From Aerococcus urinae (GTDB lineage: Bacteria > Bacillota > Bacilli > Lactobacillales > Aerococcaceae), in NCBI RefSeq assembly GCF_001543175.1, contig NZ_CP014161.1, positions 1,116,001 to 1,180,000 on the forward strand: a stretch of DNA of 64,000 nt, in the 5' to 3' direction. The notes under the pieces were generated by a model that saw nothing but the letters and a program-made list of their open reading frames with translations, had not been told where the DNA came from and did no database searches. Positions 44,560 through 54,127 of this stretch are shown here, one piece after another (positions within the stretch are counted from its first letter, which is position 1; the number at the start of each line of letters is the position of its first letter). A program made the translations under genes and the position numbers.

Positions 44560-44644
44560 TCCCTTTTGTAAGCGTCAAATAGAAACACGGCTATAAAATG
44601 TAAGCCCTCCAAACTATACTTCTAATAGTTAGGAGGGTTTTTAT

Positions 44645-44995
44645 ATGATTATTAATATGGATGACCTTCACCATATTTACATTGCCTACGGCAAAACCGA
44701 TTTGAGGAAAGGAATTGATTCGCTAACAACTATTGTTCAGGAAGATTTTAAAATGGATCCGTTCAGTCAGTCATTATTTTTATTTTGTGGAAACCGCAAT
44801 GATCGTTTTAAAGCACTCTATTGGGATGGCAGTGGCTTTTGGTTATTCTACAAACGATTTGAAGATGGTAAGATGCAATGGCCTAAAAGCCATAGAGAAT
44901 TAAAACAGATTTCAAAGCAACAGTGGCAATGGCTACTTGAAGGTTTTTCTATCGAAAGTTCTGTGCGAAAAACACAAAAGAAAAAATTTTATTGA
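44645..44995 (+). CDS. tnpB: IS66 accessory protein TnpB
   Basis: A 116-aa IS66 Orf2-type protein required for IS66 transposition. Characteristic pattern is IAYGKTDLRKGIDSLT, then LFLFCGNRNDRFKALYWDGSGFWLFYKR. AGGAGG lies 8 nt upstream of the ATG. It is followed by the transposase gene with a 57-bp gap. Length is normal. Confidence 0.95.
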   Translation: MIINMDDLHHIYIAYGKTDLRKGIDSLTTIVQEDFKMDPFSQSLFLFCGNRNDRFKALYWDGSGFWLFYKRFEDGKMQWPKSHRELKQISKQQWQWLLEGFSIESSVRKTQKKKFY

Positions 44996-45052
44996 AATAC
45001 CCATCCTCTAAAACAATTGGTAAAATAAGAAAAACGAGTGAGGAGGATGACT

Positions 45053-46690
45053 ATGACTTTAAATCGAGAACAGCAATTACTTGAAGAAATTAAAGTATTG
45101 AAGAAAATGATCAATCATCAAAAACGTGTTATCGACAGTCAGCAGTCATCCATCGACAATAAGCAGAATGAATTAAATCATCAAAATAAACTATTGAAAA
45201 ATAAAGAAGTAACGATTGCTCATCAAGATGAATTGATTCGTTATTTGAAGAAGAAACTCTATGGTCGTTCAAAAGAAAACTTAGTAAATAACAATCAGCT
45301 AAGCCTTTTTGAGATTGATGCTTGTGATTTGACCAGTGAAGAAGAGGATGAAGCAATCGAAACGATTAACTATCGTCGCAAAAAGCGACCAAAAGGTCGT
45401 AAACAAGTAGTGCTTGAACACTTTTCTGATTATGATCTTCATTACACATTAGAAGGTGAAGATCGCAATTGCTCTAATTGTCAACAAGAAATGGCAGAAA
45501 TTGGCCAAAAGAAAATTCGCCAACAGTTACGCTACGTTCCTGCGGAAATTCGTTGTGAGAATGTTATTCAGCATAGCTATAAATGTACGAATTGTTCAGA
45601 ATTAGCGGGTAAAGAGATGGTGATCAGTGCGGATGTCCCAAAACCTGTCTTTAATGGGAGCTATGCGACCGCAAGTCTTGTTTCCCACTCACTTCAACAA
45701 AAATATGAACTGAAAATTCCTGCTTACCGTCAGGAAGGTGAATGGGAAAAGATGGGCCTACCGCTTTCTCGTCAAACGCTCATTAATTGGCATGAAAAAG
45801 CTGCAGAATATTACTTTGAGCCGCTTTATCGACTGCTTTCTGGAAAGCTAATCAAACAGCCAGTCATCCATATGGATGAAACGAGTTATAAGGTCATTGA
45901 GCATGAGAAAGAAAAGACCTACTACTGGTTAGCGTGTTCTTCTCGAGAAACTCAGCAACAAATTTATCTCTATCACCATTCCCCTGGACGAAGCTTTAAT
46001 GACCTTTCCGAAGGAATGGCTGACTATGAGGGTGTGATTCATTGCGATATGTGGCATGTCTATCCCAAAATAAATGGAGCGACTATCGCTGGTTGTTGGG
46101 CGCATCTAAGACGAAAGTTTTATGAGGCCTTACCACCTAAAAAATATCAAGGTCAATTTCTCAGCTCATGGGCAGTGAAACAATGTGACCAATTTTTCAC
46201 ATTAGAAAAGAAATGGCAAGATTTATCGATATATAAACGTCTAGATAAACGCCAGACAACTTTAAAAGTAAAAATTGACCACTTTTTTGAACGCCTTCGT
46301 CAGGAATCACCTACTGCTGGAGGAAAATTAGGAACAGCCATCGCCTATGCCCTAAAATATGAAGCTTATTTCAAAACATTTTTGGAAAATGGTGCGGTTG
46401 AAATGAGCAATAACCGGGCAGAGCGTGGCATAAAAGCACTCGTTATAGGGAGGAAAAATTGGTTGTTTTCTACCTCTTTTAAAGGTGCTCAGTATTCTGG
46501 AATCATTCTATCGATCATTGAAACAGCTAAGGCCAATGGCCTTGATCCTGAAAAATATCTCACTTTCCTATTAAGTGCCATGCCGAATGAAAAGACACTC
46601 AGTGAAAAAGTGCTTGAGGATTATCTTCCCTGGCATCCCGCTATCCAAGCGATCTGTCGAAAAAAATCAAAAAGAGAATTACTTAAATAA
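45053..46690 (+). CDS. tnpC: IS66 transposase TnpC
   Basis: A DDE transposase of 545 aa. An N-terminal coiled coil (residues about 5-75) is followed by a Cys-rich zinc-binding region (CSNCQQEM, CTNC, near 140-190). The catalytic core has HMDETSYKV, HCDMWHVYPK and NNRAERGIKALVIGRKNW (Glu). The start is taken at 45053, because AGGAGG lies 6 nt upstream and overlaps the earlier GTG at 45038. No interruption is visible. Confidence 0.95.
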   Translation: MTLNREQQLLEEIKVLKKMINHQKRVIDSQQSSIDNKQNELNHQNKLLKNKEVTIAHQDELIRYLKKKLYGRSKENLVNNNQLSLFEIDACDLTSEEEDEAIETINYRRKKRPKGRKQVVLEHFSDYDLHYTLEGEDRNCSNCQQEMAEIGQKKIRQQLRYVPAEIRCENVIQHSYKCTNCSELAGKEMVISADVPKPVFNGSYATASLVSHSLQQKYELKIPAYRQEGEWEKMGLPLSRQTLINWHEKAAEYYFEPLYRLLSGKLIKQPVIHMDETSYKVIEHEKEKTYYWLACSSRETQQQIYLYHHSPGRSFNDLSEGMADYEGVIHCDMWHVYPKINGATIAGCWAHLRRKFYEALPPKKYQGQFLSSWAVKQCDQFFTLEKKWQDLSIYKRLDKRQTTLKVKIDHFFERLRQESPTAGGKLGTAIAYALKYEAYFKTFLENGAVEMSNNRAERGIKALVIGRKNWLFSTSFKGAQYSGIILSIIETAKANGLDPEKYLTFLLSAMPNEKTLSEKVLEDYLPWHPAIQAICRKKSKRELLK

Positions 46691-46691
46691 C

Positions 46692-46763
46692 AAAAAATCT
46701 TGATCAGTTGAGCATACAAAGGATTTAAAAAATCCTCTTCGCTAGCTTATCAAGATTTTTTTG
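46692..46763. terminator. Terminator at the 3' end of IS66
   Basis: AAAAAATCTTGAT at 46692-46704 pairs with ATCAAGATTTTTTT at 46749-46762, with inner AGGATTT/AAATCCT pairing. The plus-strand T run terminates the transposase transcript within the element. Confidence 0.8.
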
Positions 46764-46836
46764 AATTCTATTCTCTTATTTGACGCTTACTCCCTTTTAA
46801 GCAATTTAACTGTTTTAAAAGCGTATTTCACAATTT

Positions 46837-47703
46837 TTATTGAAATATAACTTTATCAAAGCTTTCTACTTTAGTATTAGGACTATGAAATAAATATTCT
46901 TTTTCTTTTCGAACCTTATTTGCAGAATATTGAATTTTATATTCTAATGCAGGATAATTTTTATAAATGTCCTCAATATTCTTTTCATGGTCATAAGTAA
47001 CTATCCATTTATATTCATCTAACATCTGTATATATTCATATAGTTCCTGATGATTTTTATGATTAAAAAAGTTCGCATATAAATTTTTACCCTGTTGATA
47101 ATAAGGAGGATCAAAAAAAATAAAGAGATGTCTTTTATCTTTTTTAGACAATACATTATAAATTAAAGAATTAGCTTCTAAATTATATAATTCTACATTT
47201 TTCTTTTGATCATTAATGTTTATTATTTTTTTAATAAGAGCCTCTCTATTAAATCGGCAATCTATTTTATATTTTCCTTTTTGCTCATAACCTCCTATGG
47301 GACCACCACTGATAATACCAGAACGATTAGTTCGATTAAGAAAAAAGGTAGAAAATGCTAATTCAAGTGAATATTTATTCTCATGTACTAGGTCTTCATG
47401 AATATTCTTTTGATACTTCCACTCTTCAATAGTTATCGGAGTATTTCGAATTAAATTAATAAAATTATCTACGTCATATAGTATCGCATACCATATACTA
47501 TAGATTCCAACATCTATATCATTAATAATGATAGAATTAACAGTATTTGAGAAAAGTAACTCAAGTCCAGCGCCAAAGCCGCCAGAAAATGGTTCACAGT
47601 AAGTTACATCTATCATATTATTTATTTTAATTAAATTGGTTAAAAATCCTGAAAGCTGAGTTTTTCCACCAGGGTATCTTAATGGTGATTTTGTAACAGG
47701 CAT
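46837..47703 (-). CDS. Dam-type (D12 class) DNA adenine-N6 methyltransferase
   Basis: Transfers a methyl group from AdoMet to adenine N6 in a short DNA site that cannot be read from the sequence. The 288-aa product begins MPVTKSPLRYPGGK. AdoMet motif I is EPFSGGFGAGLELL (residues about 37-50); the catalytic motif IV is DPPY (198-201). The start at 47703 follows GAGGTGA, which overlaps the stop codon of the ATPase gene, so the two are translationally coupled. An earlier TTG at 47727 is less likely. No restriction endonuclease gene is recognised nearby; the partner is the ATPase/TOPRIM protein. AT-rich compared with flanking core genes. Confidence 0.92.
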   Translation of the reverse strand: MPVTKSPLRYPGGKTQLSGFLTNLIKINNMIDVTYCEPFSGGFGAGLELLFSNTVNSIIINDIDVGIYSIWYAILYDVDNFINLIRNTPITIEEWKYQKNIHEDLVHENKYSLELAFSTFFLNRTNRSGIISGGPIGGYEQKGKYKIDCRFNREALIKKIININDQKKNVELYNLEANSLIYNVLSKKDKRHLFIFFDPPYYQQGKNLYANFFNHKNHQELYEYIQMLDEYKWIVTYDHEKNIEDIYKNYPALEYKIQYSANKVRKEKEYLFHSPNTKVESFDKVIFQ

Positions 47704-47713
47704 TAAATTCACC

Positions 47714-49420
47714 TCAAATCTTATCAAAGTATTCGTCTAATGTTATTTTTGGAATTTTATACTTTTTAACATAGATAGATTTTAATACTTCAATGATATT
47801 TTTCTTAAAATCATCTATTTCTCCTTCATGTTCTTCGGCCCAAACTCTGAAAGGGTTATATTTTACACTTCCATTAACAACTTTCTGAATATCTTTACTT
47901 TTGTAGAATCTTTTAAAAGATTCTCTAATAATTCCGTGTTTATTTGAATCATTTTTACTAAAAGTTTTTAGCTTATCTTTTAAAATTAGTGATTCATCCG
48001 ATTTATCAGATGGTTGACCTATTATTTGAGATAATTTTTCATTCACCGTTTCATTATAAACTCTATTAAAGATTGGCTTTGTAAATTTATATGGATTTTT
48101 CCAATAATCATCATTTTTAAGTTTGTTAAACAAATATTCAAATAAAAGCTGATCTGGAGGCAAATTTCCTGGAAGAATTAGAAAATTTTTATAAGTATGA
48201 TCAACTTCTTTATCCCCATCTAAAAAAACAATACTATCCGAGGTGAATTCAGGAACATCTAGATCATGTAATGTAGTTAGTTGTTCGCTACCCATTGATA
48301 CTTTTAAAATATCCAAAAGCCCTTTAAGTTTTCGGCTCTTTATAATAGATTCAAAAAATTTCTTTGCTTCAATATCTTCGAGATAAACATTTATTTTCGG
48401 TAGTTTTAAATCACTATTTTTTATGTCTCGCGTAACTACATGGATATCTGCATCAATATCAGCCCAACTAGCTTCATTTTGAACAATAATCGGACCATAT
48501 GTATTAGTCAGATAAACAGTTTTATAGTTCTTTTTATCTTTTTGTTCAAAAACTTCTTGAATTAAAGTTGGTGAGTGACTAGTCATTATAACTTGTACAT
48601 TATAATTTTTTGAAAAACTTCTAAGTATATGAAAAAATTCAATTTGTGCAGCAGGAAATAATCCTGCATCAGCTTCATCAATCAATAGGATACCACCAGT
48701 ATAATTTTCAAATTCCTGTTGTAGTTTTTTAAAGGATAGCATAGCCTTTACAAGTTGACCAACATTATCCTCACCAACTGAAATAGACTGATAATCATAG
48801 CTTTCATTATGTGGAGCCATTGATTCTAAATCTCCGGAAGTTGCAGTTACTTGGGTATTTTCTTGAAGTAAAATTCGATTTGAAAGTTGAAGTGCTAATC
48901 CCTGATTATCTCTTAGATACTCGTCATTAGTTTGTTTATAACTCCTATAAGCGATAGGTGTTAAACGATTTACACTAAGATAGATTAAAGGATAGGTTAA
49001 ATTGCGATCATTATTTCCTCTTAATACCGGACGACTTCTACTTCTATCTTTTGAATCGTAAAGTTTAAGAGATAAATTATCTAATGTCTCCTTAGATATA
49101 CCATCATAAAAAACCAAGTCGACATCCATAGTTCCTGGCAAATCATATTTTTCTGAAAAGCGGAAATGTTCACTAAATACACTTTCGTAATTTTTCCCTA
49201 GCAGAGTTTTATATTTTTTTAACCCATTTCTCTTTGGCTCTTTTTCTGAATAGTCTGTTGAAAAACTAAATACTTGAGCAATGATTCCTAAAATAGTAGA
49301 TTTAGATGTACCATTTTTTCCACAAATTAATGTAACTCTATCTCCAAAGTCAATGTTGATATTTTCCAAGCCTCTAAATTTATTAATATGCATGCTTTTT
49401 AGTTTAGAATTATAACTCAT
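47714..49420 (-). CDS. OLD-like ATPase with C-terminal TOPRIM-type domain
   Basis: A 568-aa protein with an SMC/ABC-type ATPase and a putative nuclease region. Walker A is GKNGTSKST (34-42), a signature-like segment is ISVGEDNVGQ (213-222), Walker B is GILLIDEADAG (243-253), and the switch His is in MTSHSP. The C-terminal half has NVYLEDIEA (Glu348) and VFLDGDKE (Asp401, Asp403), the acidic pattern of a TOPRIM fold. OLD-family proteins often act in phage defence as DNA nucleases. AAAGGTG precedes the ATG. It is the first gene of a two-gene operon with the methylase. No known partner such as a GajB helicase is present. Confidence 0.85.
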   Translation of the reverse strand: MSYNSKLKSMHINKFRGLENINIDFGDRVTLICGKNGTSKSTILGIIAQVFSFSTDYSEKEPKRNGLKKYKTLLGKNYESVFSEHFRFSEKYDLPGTMDVDLVFYDGISKETLDNLSLKLYDSKDRSRSRPVLRGNNDRNLTYPLIYLSVNRLTPIAYRSYKQTNDEYLRDNQGLALQLSNRILLQENTQVTATSGDLESMAPHNESYDYQSISVGEDNVGQLVKAMLSFKKLQQEFENYTGGILLIDEADAGLFPAAQIEFFHILRSFSKNYNVQVIMTSHSPTLIQEVFEQKDKKNYKTVYLTNTYGPIIVQNEASWADIDADIHVVTRDIKNSDLKLPKINVYLEDIEAKKFFESIIKSRKLKGLLDILKVSMGSEQLTTLHDLDVPEFTSDSIVFLDGDKEVDHTYKNFLILPGNLPPDQLLFEYLFNKLKNDDYWKNPYKFTKPIFNRVYNETVNEKLSQIIGQPSDKSDESLILKDKLKTFSKNDSNKHGIIRESFKRFYKSKDIQKVVNGSVKYNPFRVWAEEHEGEIDDFKKNIIEVLKSIYVKKYKIPKITLDEYFDKI

Positions 49421-49810: not shown

Positions 49811-49963
49811 ATAGTTTAGCGGTCAGGCTTGTTTGACAAGGAGGGAGCGTAAACAGCTTCAAGCCTTTATCAAGGTCCGCTCCGCTCTCCACCTTGACAA
49901 AGCCTATTAGCTGTTTTAAAAGATGGACAAGCCAAACAAGCCCAGACAGTCTAACTAAAACTA
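49811..49963. repeat. ~150-bp imperfect palindrome inside the IS3 tail
   Basis: GGCTTGTTTG (49826-49835) pairs with CAAACAAGCC (49933-49942), AAACAGCT (49851-49858) with AGCTGTTT (49909-49916), and CAAGG with CCTTG near the centre. Outer AGTTTAG/CTAACT also pair loosely. Non-coding. Confidence 0.7.
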
Positions 49964-50009
49964 GATTTAATTTTAAATTTTTTAGCCAAACGGCTAATCA
50001 CCTTTGGAT

Positions 50010-50906
50010 TTAAGCTGGAATTTTAAGGCCCATATCCAGTGTGACACGTTCGGTGTTATAAAATTCGATGTAGCGTTTAATATCTTCTTCAAGTTGTTCA
50101 AAGCTTTCATAAGTTTTCAACCTATACATCTCTTCTTTAATAATGCCCCAGAAATTTTCCATTGGTCCGTTATCAATACATTTTCCTACGCGAGACATAC
50201 TTTGAATTAACTGTTTTTCGTCAACAAAACGCTTAAAGAAATGCGAAGTATATTGGAAACCACGGTCACTGTGCAAGAGGGTTTCTGTAGGGATAAGTTC
50301 TTCTTCTACTTGAACAATCGTATCTTTAACAAGTTGATTGTTATTCCTTTGTGATAATTTAAAAGCAATAATCTTATTGGCTCCGTAATCAAGAATCGCA
50401 CTTAAATACGCTTTGTAACTATAGTTATAGCCATATTTAAACTCTGTAATATCCGTCAACAACACCTGCATCGGTTCATAATCTTTATCAAATTCACGGT
50501 TCAACACATTTTCTGCAACGTGCTGAGGCTTACTTTTTTTGTAGTGATATCGCCTACGGCGAATAACAGATTTTAAACCCATTAATTTCATGAGACGATA
50601 GACACACTTATGATTGACCCGCGCATTCTTAAAGTGATTAAGATAAATGGTGATTCGACGATAACCATAGATGCCCTCATATTTATCATAAGCTTCTTGA
50701 ATTAAAGTCATTAGCCACTGTAAACGTTGTTCTGTCTTGGATGGCTCTCGGTTGAGCCATTTATAATAAGCAGATCTACTGACACCTAGCGAATGGCATA
50801 AGAATGTTATTTTGTGTCCTTCCTGGCTTAATTTTTCGATTGTTTTGAACTCTGCTTGATATTTTGTCCGTCGGACATCAACTCTCTTTCCACTTCTTTC
50901 AATTTT
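50010..50906 (-). CDS. IS3-family transposase OrfB (DDE integrase core)
   Basis: The open frame of 298 codons begins around KIERSGKRVDVRRTKYQ and has the HTH_21 region GHKITFLCHSLGVSRSAYYKW followed by the rve integrase core. Catalytic residues are visible in LLTDITEF (Asp), LHSDRGFQYTS (Asp) and PMENFWGIIKEE (Glu). There is no ATG, GTG or TTG in frame before 50711, so expression needs a frameshift from OrfA. The frame is +1 to OrfA rather than the usual -1, which suggests an indel near 50883-50892 and a possibly inactive element. Confidence 0.8.
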   Translation of the reverse strand, partial: KIERSGKRVDVRRTKYQAEFKTIEKLSQEGHKITFLCHSLGVSRSAYYKWLNREPSKTEQRLQWLMTLIQEAYDKYEGIYGYRRITIYLNHFKNARVNHKCVYRLMKLMGLKSVIRRRRYHYKKSKPQHVAENVLNREFDKDYEPMQVLLTDITEFKYGYNYSYKAYLSAILDYGANKIIAFKLSQRNNNQLVKDTIVQVEEELIPTETLLHSDRGFQYTSHFFKRFVDEKQLIQSMSRVGKCIDNGPMENFWGIIKEEMYRLKTYESFEQLEEDIKRYIEFYNTERVTLDMGLKIPA

Positions 50907-51558
50907 TTAGAGCAGCATTTTCCGTTTCTAAGTATTCATTACGTGCTTTAAGCGCAGCTAATTCTGTACGTAACTTCTCTTCTTCATTTTGAATACTCAT
51001 CGGTTTGCGGCGTCCTCTACTATCAATGAGCCCATTGGGACCATATTTCTTATACTTTTGGACCCATGAGTAAACATTATTGTAGGAAACTTTATGTTTT
51101 TCAGCAGTCTCTTTATAAGACATTCCTGTTTCAAGAAAATCTTTAACAATATCAACTTTTTCCTGATAGGTTTTCTTTTGGCTTTTCATTGTATACACCT
51201 CGGGTTTAGGGTGGTAGCCCTTTAATTCTTCCCTTTTAGTATACTTAGTAATCCAATTCCTTACAGTAGAAAAGCTAGGGATATTGTATTTTCTAGCAAT
51301 TTTTGTAATTGAGATGTCTGTATTCAAGTATTCTTGAACGACGTTCTGCTTAAACTTTTCACTATAAGAATTATTCTTTGTCTGTGATTCCAGCCCTGCA
51401 AAGCCATGTTCTAGATATTTGAGATAATATTCTCTAAAGACAGATGAATGAATTGAGAGACCATATTGATCACAAAGCTCGGCATAGGAAGTTCCTTCTT
51501 CATAAAGATGGATATATTTAGCCAACTCTGCTGGTGAATGCTTTCTATTTGAACGCAT
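50899..51558 (-). CDS. IS3-family OrfA (HTH protein)
   Basis: A 219-aa DNA-binding protein with three helix-turn-helix segments: YAELCDQYGLSIHSSVFREY, ITKIARKYNIPSFSTVRNWI and SYKETAEKHKVSYNNVYSWV. A C-terminal leucine-zipper-like helix (EEEKLRTELAALKARNEYLE) follows. The last codons CTA AAA AAT TGA provide an A-rich slippery site for frameshifting into OrfB. The start has a GGGGGAG-type site. Confidence 0.88.
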   Translation of the reverse strand: MRSNRKHSPAELAKYIHLYEEGTSYAELCDQYGLSIHSSVFREYYLKYLEHGFAGLESQTKNNSYSEKFKQNVVQEYLNTDISITKIARKYNIPSFSTVRNWITKYTKREELKGYHPKPEVYTMKSQKKTYQEKVDIVKDFLETGMSYKETAEKHKVSYNNVYSWVQKYKKYGPNGLIDSRGRRKPMSIQNEEEKLRTELAALKARNEYLETENAALKN

Positions 51559-51613
51559 AAAAACTCCCCCTAAAGTAGTTTTACTTTTTCAAGTGTCTAC
51601 TTTAAGGGGAGCA

Positions 51614-51984
51614 TACCAATCTTTCAAAACCATGTTTTTATTTTTAAGCAATAATATAATATTATATAGTAACTTCAAAGTTTCTACCATTCTAACTAAT
51701 AATTTATAAATAACCAACCAAATAAAATTAATCTCTATATTCTTTTTTCATTAATATTTTCTTACAAAGAATAATTACTACCTGGATACTTAACAAATAC
51801 CTTATTAGCTAATAGAAAATATTTTCAACTACTCCCCCAAAATTATACAATTTAAAAATATCAAAAGATTAAATAAAGGAATTAGAGCCAACTAAGCGGT
51901 TATTAACTGAATTGGAATATTACTAAAAGCTATACCGTAAAAAATAATTATAATATTAATGAAATAAGTTTTATGACTAAAGAG
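51614..51984. other. AT-rich intergenic region, nothing recognised
   Basis: No open frame, terminator or repeat of note is visible between the IS3 end and the TIR-domain gene remnant. It is extremely AT-rich like the rest of the island. Confidence 0.5.
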
Positions 51985-52734
51985 TTATATTTCTTTATAT
52001 AAACCTTTTTTATCATTCTTATTAATTAACATGTCAAAATTTATAAAGAACTCATCTAAATGTCCAGGTAGCATAAACTTATTCTTTACTTGTAGCTCAA
52101 TATTAAGTTTTTGATTTTCACGTAATATTTTCTTCAATCTTTCAAAATCAGTTTGAGAAAGACTATTATTTACTACCTTAATATTCTCACTTTCAGTATA
52201 ATTAGCCATATTTATTTTTTTACCTATATCTGGCAACAAATCTTCAATTTCTTCAGCAAATTGCTTATCAACCATATTATTTTGTTCTAATAAAGATTCA
52301 AAATCATATTCTTCAATATCTCTATTTGATTCGTTCTTTAATTTTGCTACTTCATTATATAAATCAGTTAACTGCTCCCTATTTAAATTACATGCCTGAA
52401 ATTGATTAATAGGACTTGGCAAAGACTCAACCTTCATTCCTAAACAACACAATGGAATACATTTTATTTTGTTCATCCAGGCTGCTCCCAATTCAAAATT
52501 TATCCATGGTCTATAAACTGACTTTTTACTGCATACGCTTATTAGCAGATTAGATGTCTTTAAATTATTTAATATTACTTCATTAAAATTGCTACCCAAA
52601 ACTTAAACTTTCTGTATCTGATGATACAAAAATATCTAAGCCGTCATGAAAATTCTTTTGAATATTATCTTTTAGTTCAATCGCAAAATCATTATCTTCA
52701 TGATAGAAAGAGATAAATATTTTAGGTTTTTTCA
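51985..52734 (-). pseudogene. TIR-domain protein gene broken by a single frameshift
   Basis: From an ATG at 52734 behind GGAG the frame gives MKKPKIFISFYHEDNDFAIE, the beta-A/alpha-A part of a TIR domain, through DIFVSSDTESLSFG, then stops at TAG near 52592. In the +1 frame the protein continues GSNFNEVILNNLKTSN and then LLISVCSKKSVYRPWINFELGAAW, where the Glu of WINFELG is the expected NADase residue. Joined, it would be about 249 aa: TIR (1-135) plus a C-terminal helical region. The lesion maps to TTTTGGG at 52594-52601. TIR proteins in bacteria often serve in anti-phage NAD depletion. It could also be a sequencing error. Confidence 0.75.
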
Positions 52735-53555: not shown

Positions 53556-53801
53556 ATGCCTTTAACAATTAATAAATGGGGGAATAGTTCTGCTATTCGA
53601 TTACCAAAACAGTTGCTTGAAGAATTAAATTTATCCCAAGGCGACAAACTGGATTATCAAGTGAAAGATGGTCAACTGATTATAAAAAAAATAACCGAAG
53701 TTCCTGAACTTACGGTTAAAGATTTGTTTGAAAATTATGATGGAGCTCCTGTTAATGAAAAGCCCGTATTATTTGAACAAAGAGGAAATGAAAAATGGTA
53801 A
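53556..53801 (+). CDS. mazE: MazE-type antitoxin (AbrB/SpoVT fold)
   Basis: An 81-aa antitoxin that binds DNA as a dimer and neutralises the toxin with its C-terminus. The swapped-hairpin domain MPLTINKWGNSSAIRLPKQL, then LNLSQGDKLDYQVKDGQLII covers residues about 1-48; the remaining acidic tail is the expected toxin-binding part. GAAAGGAG precedes the ATG. It overlaps the toxin gene by 7 nt. Confidence 0.92.
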   Translation: MPLTINKWGNSSAIRLPKQLLEELNLSQGDKLDYQVKDGQLIIKKITEVPELTVKDLFENYDGAPVNEKPVLFEQRGNEKW

Positions 53802-54127
53802 AAGTGAAGCAAGGATCGATTATCAAAATAAATTTAGATCCAAAACAGGGACATGAGCAAAAAGGCTATAGGCCCTATATTTGTTTGAGCCATGGTATTG
53901 TTACTAAGTACTCAAATATTGCCATTTTTGCACCGATTAGCAATACAAAAAGAAAATATCCCTTTTATGTAGAGTTAGAACAGACAAAAACAACTGGAAA
54001 AGTACTCTTAGATCAGTTAGTTACCATCGATTTTAATGCCAGAGACTATAATTATATCGAACAAGTCACAGATGATATCCTCATTGATTTATTAGCTAGG
54101 GTAAAAGTATTATTCGAAAAAGAGTAA
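53795..54127 (+). CDS. mazF: MazF/PemK-type endoribonuclease toxin
   Basis: A 110-aa mRNA interferase. Family motifs include GSIIKINLDPKQGHEQKGYR (residues 7-26, split as GSI-LDP-GHEQ-G-RP) and ISNTKRKYPFYVEL, followed by KVLLDQLVTIDF, where Gln and the Asp region are typical. The start overlaps the mazE stop (ATGGTAA), so the genes are co-translated. A weak hairpin (GTAAGA/TCTTAC, then TGTTTT) follows the stop and may end transcription. Confidence 0.92.
   Translation: MVKVKQGSIIKINLDPKQGHEQKGYRPYICLSHGIVTKYSNIAIFAPISNTKRKYPFYVELEQTKTTGKVLLDQLVTIDFNARDYNYIEQVTDDILIDLLARVKVLFEKE

What the first reader, a model, noticed from the sequence alone, without database searches (positions are those of the whole stretch)
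46837..49420. Two-gene module: Dam-type methylase coupled to an OLD-like ATPase/TOPRIM protein
The ATPase stop overlaps the methylase ribosome binding site, so the pair is one translational unit. The ATPase has full Walker A/B motifs and a separate acidic pattern (Glu348, Asp401, Asp403) of a TOPRIM nuclease. A solitary adenine methylase next to a DNA-sensing ATPase/nuclease, between two IS elements and a TIR gene, looks like a defence system in which methylation marks self. I do not recognise it as Gabija (no helicase), PARIS (one fused chain here) or a classical restriction-modification system.
Basis: partly seen in the sequence, partly recalled or inferred. Interest (0 to 1): 0.7.

Follow-up and report, generated by a model that had tools for sequence, protein, structure and literature searches.

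The report
OLD-type ATPase–nuclease paired with adenine methylase
Two neighbouring bacterial genes, one resembling a DNA-cutting ATPase and one a DNA-marking enzyme, form a widely conserved mobile pair that probably works as a virus-defence system, related to but distinct from the named system PD-Lambda-5.

Summary
At 46837-49420 (- strand) lie a 568-aa ABC-type ATPase with a TOPRIM-like C-terminal domain and an adenine methylase (288 aa) whose ribosome site overlaps the ATPase stop codon. The pairing is conserved: in 395 genomes of the order, 14 carry the ATPase and all 14 have the methylase beside it; in 398 of the phylum, 9 of 9 (both include the window's genome). Relatives lie in prophages, an ICE and a P2-type hotspot. 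E348, D349, D401 and D403 are invariant in 90 of 90 relatives. The model (pLDDT 93.8) ranks GajA, retron Eco8 and OLD among its top PDB matches. The methylase is of the PD-Lambda-5_B family; the ATPase is not PD-Lambda-5_A. That methylase family also pairs with ParB-like PD-Lambda-5_A and HerA/NurA proteins, with about 15 partner changes on its tree. Best reading: a restriction-like module in which a self-marking methylase carries exchangeable effectors, here an OLD nuclease. Defence, target site and cleavage are untested. I found no published name in the papers held; one likely source was not available.

The parts
47714..49420 (-). OLD-type ABC ATPase with C-terminal TOPRIM-like domain, 568 aa (phrog_3940 family)
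46837..47703 (-). Dam-type adenine methylase, 288 aa from the likely ATG (PADLOC PD-Lambda-5_B family; the mechanical ORF starts at a TTG at 47727)
47709..47716 (-). ATPase stop codon TGA overlapping the methylase ribosome-binding site GAGGTG
49298..49321 (-). Walker A, residues 34-41 (G34, N36, K40, S41 invariant in 90 of 90)
48674..48679 (-). Walker B D248-E249 (invariant in 90 of 90)
48374..48379 (-). TOPRIM-like acidic motif E348-D349 at the end of strand 343-347
48212..48220 (-). TOPRIM-like D401-x-D403 at the end of strand 397-400
47101..47112 (-). Methylase catalytic motif IV, DPPY
44568..46790 (+). IS66-like element on the 3' side of the pair, with one further copy at 100% in the chromosome
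49900..51618 (-). IS3-like element on the 5' side of the pair (left boundary not determined), four further copies at 100%

Best explanation
A mobile, restriction-like defence module. The methylase puts N6-methyladenine at its target sites on the cell's (or prophage's) own DNA. The partner is an OLD-type protein: an ABC ATPase that assembles and senses DNA, with a TOPRIM metal-dependent nuclease domain that attacks DNA lacking the mark or becomes active when the mark is missing. The methylase is the common part of a larger family, in which the effector slot is filled by an OLD nuclease (here), a ParB-like PD-Lambda-5_A protein, or HerA plus NurA. Because the same methylase lineage sits beside unrelated effectors, I infer that recognition of the site or its methylation state is supplied largely by the methylase, perhaps in a complex, and that the effector is an exchangeable executioner. 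Shown here: the two-gene anatomy, conservation of catalytic residues, conserved adjacency, mobile context of relatives, partner exchange. Inferred: phage defence, self-marking, DNA as the target, complex formation.
For: Adjacency in samples drawn without regard to the partner: 14 of 14 ATPase-positive genomes among 395 of the order (methylase in 17) and 9 of 9 among 398 of the phylum (methylase in 17), each including the window's genome; all 22 distinct pairs on one strand, 29-475 bp apart, 19 ATPase-first and 3 methylase-first. Odds of such overlap by chance 10^-22.5 and 10^-13.4, ignoring relatedness. Best-hit lists: methylase within 500 bp in 61 of 80 genome loci (best 80 of 134) and 61 of 80 viral loci (best 80 of 135). 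Active-site residues invariant in 90 of 90 ATPases; DPPY in 151 of 151 methylases. Structure pLDDT 93.8; top PDB matches include GajA, retron Eco8 and OLD. The methylase fits PD-Lambda-5_B, and PD-Lambda-5 protected E. [quoted passage not shown] Partner exchange: 15 changes on an IQ-TREE tree of 91 methylases, 17 on a FastTree of 168. Mobile context of relatives: near integrase or excisionase genes in phages and prophages, in an ICE, in a P2-like hotspot.
Against: No functional data. A Haemophilus/Aggregatibacter-type group has the ATPase without the methylase in the stretch held (L065, L066, L156, L159-L165, L169; 0.5-5 kb on either side), so the ATPase can stand alone. 11 of 33 methylase-positive genomes lack the ATPase. 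The methylase also fits PADLOC's general MTase_II model (5.1e-92), so its PD-Lambda-5_B label is not exclusive. Profile comparison with P2 Old matched only the Walker B stretch. Foldseek TM-scores are low (by query length 0.26-0.39 in the 50 rows shown) with large rmsd, and TOPRIM-less PtuA and SMC heads also score well; a fold of the C-terminal domain alone did not finish. For the E. coli OLD protein YbjD the Toprim domain is reported as dispensable and the ATPase as essential (PMC13261556, abstract in listing). In P. aeruginosa PAO1 an OLD gene and a methylase gene at different loci were tested and found independent (PMC6945700, passages). If the effector has its own sequence specificity, partner exchange is hard to explain.
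Confidence: 0.5

Rival explanations
1. Guard model: the OLD effector does not inspect target DNA itself but kills or arrests the cell (DNA or tRNA cleavage) when the methylase or host methylation is blocked or when phage DNA-processing proteins appear, as PARIS reacts to anti-restriction proteins. The methylase is the guarded bait or an antitoxin-like silencer.
For: PARIS AriAB is an OLD-type ATPase plus TOPRIM that senses the anti-restriction protein Ocr (PMC9122126, passages); AriB cleaves tRNA (PMC12409363, title and start of abstract in listing; PMC12839542, passage). Gabija and retron Eco8, among the top structural matches, are described as acting by abortive infection (PMC10568477, passages). 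PD-Lambda-5 was called RM+Abi.
Against: ATPase-only loci exist, so the effector is tolerated without this methylase, which argues against a strict antitoxin role. No direct data either way.
Confidence: 0.25
2. Two independent cargo genes: the methylase protects the prophage from host restriction, and the OLD gene is a separate exclusion gene such as P2 old; they sit together only because both are mobile cargo.
For: Both occur separately in some elements; several copies are on prophages; an OLD gene and a methylase gene of P. aeruginosa, at different loci, proved independent.
Against: 22 of 22 adjacency on one strand in the order and phylum samples, stop/ribosome-site overlap in the window, the pair in both gene orders and on an ICE, and correlated divergence of the two proteins (Mantel r 0.74, 0 of 999 permutations as high), which is partly due to shared ancestry.
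Confidence: 0.17
3. It is simply a divergent PD-Lambda-5.
For: The methylase matches PD-Lambda-5_B at 2.7e-109, and 19 loci (at least one a duplicate) hold ATPase, PD-Lambda-5_A-like gene and methylase together.
Against: No PD-Lambda-5_A among the 25 best of 111 PADLOC matches of the ATPase, and the C-terminal piece from residue 335 has a single match, HEC-04. One PD-Lambda-5_A model (PDLC04017) finds nothing in the genome, but its 14 control genomes were negative too. PD-Lambda-5_A proteins match those models at up to 5e-168.
Confidence: 0.05

Closest known systems
PD-Lambda-5 (Vassallo et al. 2022, PMC9519451)
   Same: Methylase fits the same family model (PADLOC PD-Lambda-5_B, 2.7e-109); two-gene module found on P2-like and other prophages
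   Different: Effector is an OLD-type ATPase/TOPRIM instead of PD-Lambda-5_A, a protein of about 440-500 aa, one annotated ParB/Srx; three of them had no Pfam match
Gabija (GajA/GajB)
   Same: GajA is the best structural match of the ATPase (8sm3, Foldseek E 2e-12)
   Different: Partner is a methylase, not a UvrD-like GajB; GajA models match only over short stretches
Class 1 OLD (P2 Old, TsOLD)
   Same: ABC ATPase followed by TOPRIM in one chain, prophage carriage; 6p74 is the fifth structural match
   Different: Those are described as single genes (PMC10568477, passages); here a methylase is linked. P2 Old aligns only around Walker B
Class 3 OLD of retrons (Eco8)
   Same: Structure match 9lpa; PADLOC ATPase-Toprim_I-B model covers residues 244-456, Walker B and the acidic residues (2.9e-13)
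   Different: By eye no reverse transcriptase among the ORFs next to the pair
PARIS (AriA/AriB)
   Same: OLD-type ATPase and TOPRIM
   Different: AriA and AriB, separate or fused, without methylase; partial profile matches
OLD-ABC/TOPRIM 'backup effectors' in BREX and related loci (PMC12839542, passages)
   Same: OLD-TOPRIM proteins near methylation-based defence genes
   Different: Those accompany multi-gene BREX loci; here a compact pair with a Dam-type methylase
Type II restriction-modification
   Same: Dam/DpnM-type methylase linked to a putative nuclease; PADLOC MTase_II 5.1e-92
   Different: Nuclease candidate is an OLD-type ATPase and the methylase family exchanges partners

Membership tests
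PD-Lambda-5 | PD-Lambda-5_B methylase | tested here: met
   2.7e-109, residues 9-292; MTase_II also 5.1e-92
PD-Lambda-5 | PD-Lambda-5_A effector | tested here: not met
   none among the best 25 of 111 PADLOC families of the ATPase nor for its C-terminal pieces (best 25 of 68, and 1 of 1); PDLC04017 not found in the genome (controls also negative). PD-Lambda-5_A proteins match strongly
PD-Lambda-5 | anti-phage activity | not testable with these tools
   needs plating
OLD-family ATPase/nuclease | N-terminal ABC ATPase with Walker A, signature, Walker B, H-loop | tested here: met
   G34,N36,K40,S41; S214,G216; D248,E249; H282 invariant 90 of 90; AAA_15
OLD-family ATPase/nuclease | C-terminal TOPRIM domain with acidic E...DxD | tested here: met
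   E348,D349,D401,D403 invariant 90 of 90, following strands 343-347 and 397-400; structural matches to GajA, Eco8, OLD. Weak points: no profile match to P2 Old in this part, low TM-scores, isolated-domain fold unfinished
OLD-family ATPase/nuclease | nuclease activity | not testable with these tools
   needs protein
Gabija | GajA with adjacent GajB UvrD-like helicase | tested here: not met
   the ORFs of at least 80 aa next to the ATPase in the window are the methylase and a transposase; the neighbour is a methylase in 22 of 22 sampled genomes
PARIS | AriA ATPase plus AriB (or fused AriAB) | tested here: not met
   AriA/AriAB models match only partially (67 and 65 bits; best stretches residues 192-287 and 6-61); neighbours as
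Retron I-B (class 3 OLD) | reverse transcriptase and ncRNA beside the OLD gene | tested here: inconclusive
   by eye no reverse transcriptase among the ORFs around the pair; no ncRNA search was run
Type II R-M | methylase and endonuclease of one specificity | not testable with these tools
   specificity unknown for both

The most novel reading that the evidence does not exclude
The PD-Lambda-5_B-type methylase is a general licensing and recognition hub into which unrelated effectors plug (OLD-TOPRIM, ParB-like PD-Lambda-5_A, HerA-NurA, and perhaps DruE), so that one methylation code controls several killing machines. That would make a superfamily of modular restriction-like systems in which the methylase, not the nuclease, decides what is attacked.
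Probability: 0.35. Interest if true: 0.75.

Novelty: new variant of a known kind. Interest (0 to 1): 0.5.

Why it matters
The pair is in about 2-4% of the genomes sampled here (14 of 395 in the order; 9 of 398 in the phylum), and a near-full-length ATPase is in 85 of 5,426 E. coli genomes; yet PADLOC (2023) recognises only its methylase and PHROGs lists the ATPase family as of unknown function. It ties an OLD-type protein to a DNA mark, which makes a trigger question directly testable: does methylation of incoming DNA switch the nuclease off? The repeated exchange of effectors beside one methylase family points to a modular design like that of retrons and CBASS (recalled), here built on DNA methylation.

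Tried and rejected
PD-Lambda-5 membership: rejected because the effector is another protein. Gabija, PARIS, retron, Septu: only partial matches. Sequence proof of TOPRIM: hhalign with P2 Old matched Walker B only, so the TOPRIM claim rests on invariant residues and the model. Relatives of P2 Old in viral contigs (8 loci) were not used further. The idea that the methylase is a non-specific M.EcoGII type: only a search listing was seen, not pursued. Empty-site comparison: the left-hand PTS gene has one distant match (37% identity) among the 14 other same-genus genomes, and mazF matches in three of them are 34-46%, so no clean empty site could be drawn. In one search one row (L017) was put among the ATPases by mistake; one search showed it to be PD-Lambda-5_A, and it was left out of all later ATPase alignments.

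Papers: ten searches listed no paper that I recognised as naming an OLD-TOPRIM plus Dam-type methylase pair; the listings are capped and most papers were not opened. Krishnan et al. 2020 (ABC ATPase classification; [quoted passage not shown]

Limits of the counts: the best-hit lists are not independent; several viral contigs are near-identical, and only the best 80 of 134, 135 and 482 relatives were kept. The order and phylum samples share the window's genome. One search kept 151 unique full-length pairs of 186. One search thinned 215 methylases to 168. One search used 91 rows: half of the OLD-partnered rows, the rows with two partner types, those with none and two long-branch rows were left out. 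The C-terminal alignment used 62 of 90 rows. One search gave its count and then stopped on a script error. After re-checking I lowered the main confidence from 0.55 to 0.5 because of the YbjD and PAO1 reports, and raised the two main rivals slightly.
Full report
What is there. The window encodes, on the minus strand, a 568-aa ATPase (47714-49420) followed by a Dam-type methylase. The junction reads AAGATT TGA GGTGAATTTA ATG: the ATPase stop overlaps the methylase ribosome site and the methylase most likely starts at the ATG at 47703, giving 288 aa; three relatives of the same family have M-P-[VM]-T-K-S-P at this point. GC is 26-30% over the pair, 35-45% in the 7 kb to the left, mixed to the right. 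The pair is bracketed by an IS66-like and an IS3-like element with further copies at 100% identity elsewhere in the chromosome (one and four), so these insertions look recent.

The methylase. Pfam gave no match and NCBIfam's Dam subfamily a sub-threshold one (3.1e-13, 50 bits against a cut-off of 114.85). PADLOC's PD-Lambda-5_B model fits residues 9-292 (2.7e-109), with the general MTase_II model second (5.1e-92), and PHROG 56 'DNA methyltransferase' at 2e-46. Among solved structures the family profile finds 7m6b (adenine-specific methyltransferase, 3.1e-29), DpnM (1.5e-7) and Dam (5e-4). DPPY is present in 151 of 151 unique paired relatives and RYPGGK in 150. The target site is unknown.

The ATPase. 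It matches AAA_15, AAA_21 and, below the cut-off, SMC_N, and PHROG 3940 'unknown function' over residues 5-549 (2.5e-138). The best PADLOC matches are partial: HEC-04, PtuA, AriA and GajA, about 63-71 bits (25 of 111 shown). Its C-terminal part from residue 241 matches the ATPase-Toprim model of type I-B retrons over residues 244-456 (2.9e-13). In 90 relatives down to 26% identity, R16, G34, N36, K40, S41, R152, S214, G216, D218, D248, E249, Q259, Q276, H282, S283, E348, D349, D401 and D403 are invariant; in the C-terminal alignment of 62 of these, residue 503 (K) is invariant too. AlphaFold2 gives mean pLDDT 93.8 and pTM 0.74; E348 and D401 follow directly after strands 343-347 and 397-400, with helix-strand-helix between, the order expected of a TOPRIM domain (general knowledge). 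Foldseek's first six PDB matches are GajA (8sm3, 8u7i, 8x5i), retron Eco8 (9lpa), retron Eco7 (9vhl) and Thermus OLD (6p74), E 2e-12 to 9e-11, but TM-scores by query length are 0.26-0.39 in the 50 rows shown, rmsd is large, and PtuA and SMC heads without TOPRIM also score well. P2 Old matched by profile only around Walker B. So the OLD-type ATPase is firm, and the TOPRIM assignment well supported but not proven. A fold of the C-terminal domain alone was accepted and did not finish.

Is the pairing conserved? In 395 genomes of the order the ATPase profile (E up to 1e-40) finds 14 genomes and the methylase profile 17, and the 14 lie among the 17. In 398 genomes of the phylum the numbers are 9 and 17, and the 9 lie among the 17. 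The window's own genome is in both, so there are 22 distinct genomes; in 22 of 22 the genes are neighbours on one strand, 29-475 bp apart, ATPase first in 19 and methylase first in 3. Three of these copies show stops inside (G286 in both genes, G579 and G733 in the ATPase). Under random placement the overlaps have odds of 10^-22.5 and 10^-13.4, ignoring common descent. None of the 14 other genomes of the genus has the ATPase (E up to 1e-20). In best-hit lists from contig collections (best 80 of 134 and of 135), the methylase lies within 500 bp in 61 of 80 genome loci and 61 of 80 viral loci; 7 and 4 have it further off; 12 and 15 have none, of which 6 and 7 come within 1 kb of a contig or locus end. 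Among those without it, a Haemophilus/Aggregatibacter-type group stands out (L065, L066, L156, L159-L165, L169); in the six of these inspected (L065, L066, L156, L161, L162, L169), the methylase profile finds nothing even at E up to 10. The association is strong but not obligatory.

Where relatives travel. Annotated examples: Citrobacter phage phiNP, next to xis and a DUF3596 protein (the methylase gene is not annotated there); Vibrio phage ValB1MD-2, convergent genes, integrase about 3 kb away; Streptococcus phage phiGBSVK-D_GBSInt4, beside the integrase; E. coli 042, beside a site-specific integrase; an E. coli integrative conjugative element; E. coli 8GC, beside intE near icd; and E. coli E110019, between the replication gene and the portal gene of a P2-like prophage, methylase first, which is the hotspot position described in PMC9122126 (passages). 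In E. coli 94 of 5,426 genomes have an ATPase match, 85 over at least 80% of its length; 135 have a methylase match, 87 over at least 80% (DNA searches with the phiNP genes).

The methylase family has other partners. Of 80 viral loci fetched with the methylase profile (best 80 of 482), 45 have the ATPase within 600 bp, 26 a PD-Lambda-5_A-like gene and 9 neither; of the 9, one has a weaker PD-Lambda-5_A-like fragment beside it (L214) and two have one 1.4 kb away (L241, L245). PD-Lambda-5_A proteins, one annotated 'ParB/Srx family N-terminal domain', match PADLOC's models at up to 5e-168, whereas the window's ATPase does not appear with them. A third partner type is HerA plus a NurA-domain protein (L216: DUF87 1.8e-8, NurA 7.1e-10; similar genes by eye in L200, L220, L234, L238 and L019). 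Of the 11 methylase-bearing genomes without the ATPase in the order and phylum samples, looked at within about 1.5 kb, two have PD-Lambda-5_A (G673, G635), one a NurA-domain protein (G577) with a similar one by eye in G602, two a HerA-like gene by eye (G409, G727), one a DruE-like C-terminus (G751), two an unrecognised protein of about 490 aa (G190, G332), and two show nothing obvious (G345, G688). Nineteen loci, at least one a duplicate, carry ATPase, PD-Lambda-5_A-like gene and methylase together, several in Bacteroidales.

Partner exchange. On an IQ-TREE tree of 91 methylases the labels OLD, PD-Lambda-5_A and HerA need 15 changes (2 would be the least; shuffled mean 32.4, so the labels are also clustered); well supported branches alone force 7, 8 and 4 changes for the three labels. 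A FastTree of 168 rows gives 17 and a quick IQ-TREE tree of 106 rows 16 (which then stopped on a script error). Labels depend on distance limits of 1.5-2.5 kb. Within the OLD type the two proteins diverge together (Mantel r 0.74 over 151 pairs, 0 of 999 permutations as high), with exceptions: 75 locus pairs have methylases of at least 60% identity beside ATPases of at most 35%, and 43 have ATPases of at least 60% beside methylases of at most 45%. These are not independent: of those printed, 11 of 15 involve one locus (L178), and 19 of 20 of the reverse kind involve L058 or L069, where the methylase lies 2 kb from the ATPase beside a ParB-like gene. The window is another case: its nearest methylase (69%, genome G054) sits beside an ATPase only 23% identical to the window's.

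How it probably works. [quoted passage not shown] They used a host without mrr for it, which would fit a methylase that adds adenine methylation foreign to the host (inference). OLD proteins are ATPase-nucleases; in P2 Old the Toprim acidic residues and the Walker A lysine were both needed for killing recBC cells (PMC10568477, passage), whereas for YbjD the Toprim domain is reported dispensable (PMC13261556, abstract in listing). Putting these together, the most likely reading is a restriction-like module in which the methylase marks self and the OLD protein executes. The exchange of effectors suggests that the methylase carries the recognition; this is inference. The main rival is a guard-type abortive system like PARIS. 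The nearest negative precedent is P. aeruginosa PAO1, where an OLD gene and a methylase gene at different loci were found independent (PMC6945700, passages).

Novelty. Ten searches of the held library listed no paper that I recognised as naming this pair. I saw passages of PMC9122126, PMC10568477, PMC12839542, PMC10853773, PMC10287943, PMC6945700, PMC11811056 and PMC10482375, and passages plus section 7 of PMC9519451; the rest were listings. [quoted passage not shown] the earlier work was not held, so a prior in-silico description is possible. I rate it a new variant of a known kind: a PD-Lambda-5-like, methylase-centred module with an OLD effector.

Noticed in passing
51985-52599 (-): TIR-domain ORF (TIR_2 6e-5, under Pfam's cut-off; PADLOC TIR-TM 4e-7) that begins inside the domain; an N-terminal piece lies just upstream in another frame (by eye), so the gene looks frameshifted.
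   Followed up: partly
53556-54127 (+): MazE/MazF-type toxin-antitoxin pair next to the island; two weaker MazF-like genes elsewhere in the genome.
   Followed up: partly
L005:6799-7680 (Citrobacter phage phiNP, OR565852): The methylase gene downstream of the annotated ATPase is not annotated in the record.
   Followed up: no
L216:5855-9227, L200, L220, L234, L238, L019: HerA plus NurA-domain proteins next to the same methylase family: a third effector module (HerA models match L216 at 1e-17; the NurA-like protein has no PADLOC match; the other loci by eye).
   Followed up: partly
L082, L091: OLD ATPase, HerA-like and NurA-like genes and the methylase together in one locus (by eye).
   Followed up: no
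L088:2934-4175, L099:2729-3541: Distant ATPase relatives without the adenine methylase lie near genes that look by eye like cytosine-5 methyltransferases, suggesting the OLD effector may pair with other methylases.
   Followed up: no
L287:3-1481, L293:2-1468: Two unrecognised proteins of about 490 aa directly upstream of the methylase; no Pfam or PADLOC match.
   Followed up: partly
L316:1-2337: DruE-like C-terminus (9.8e-156) directly followed by the methylase: a Druantia-like locus with a PD-Lambda-5_B-type methylase.
   Followed up: no
L065, L066, L156, L159-L165, L169: Haemophilus/Aggregatibacter-type loci carry the ATPase without the methylase; in 5 of the 6 inspected a regulator of XRE look lies just upstream (by eye).
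   Followed up: partly
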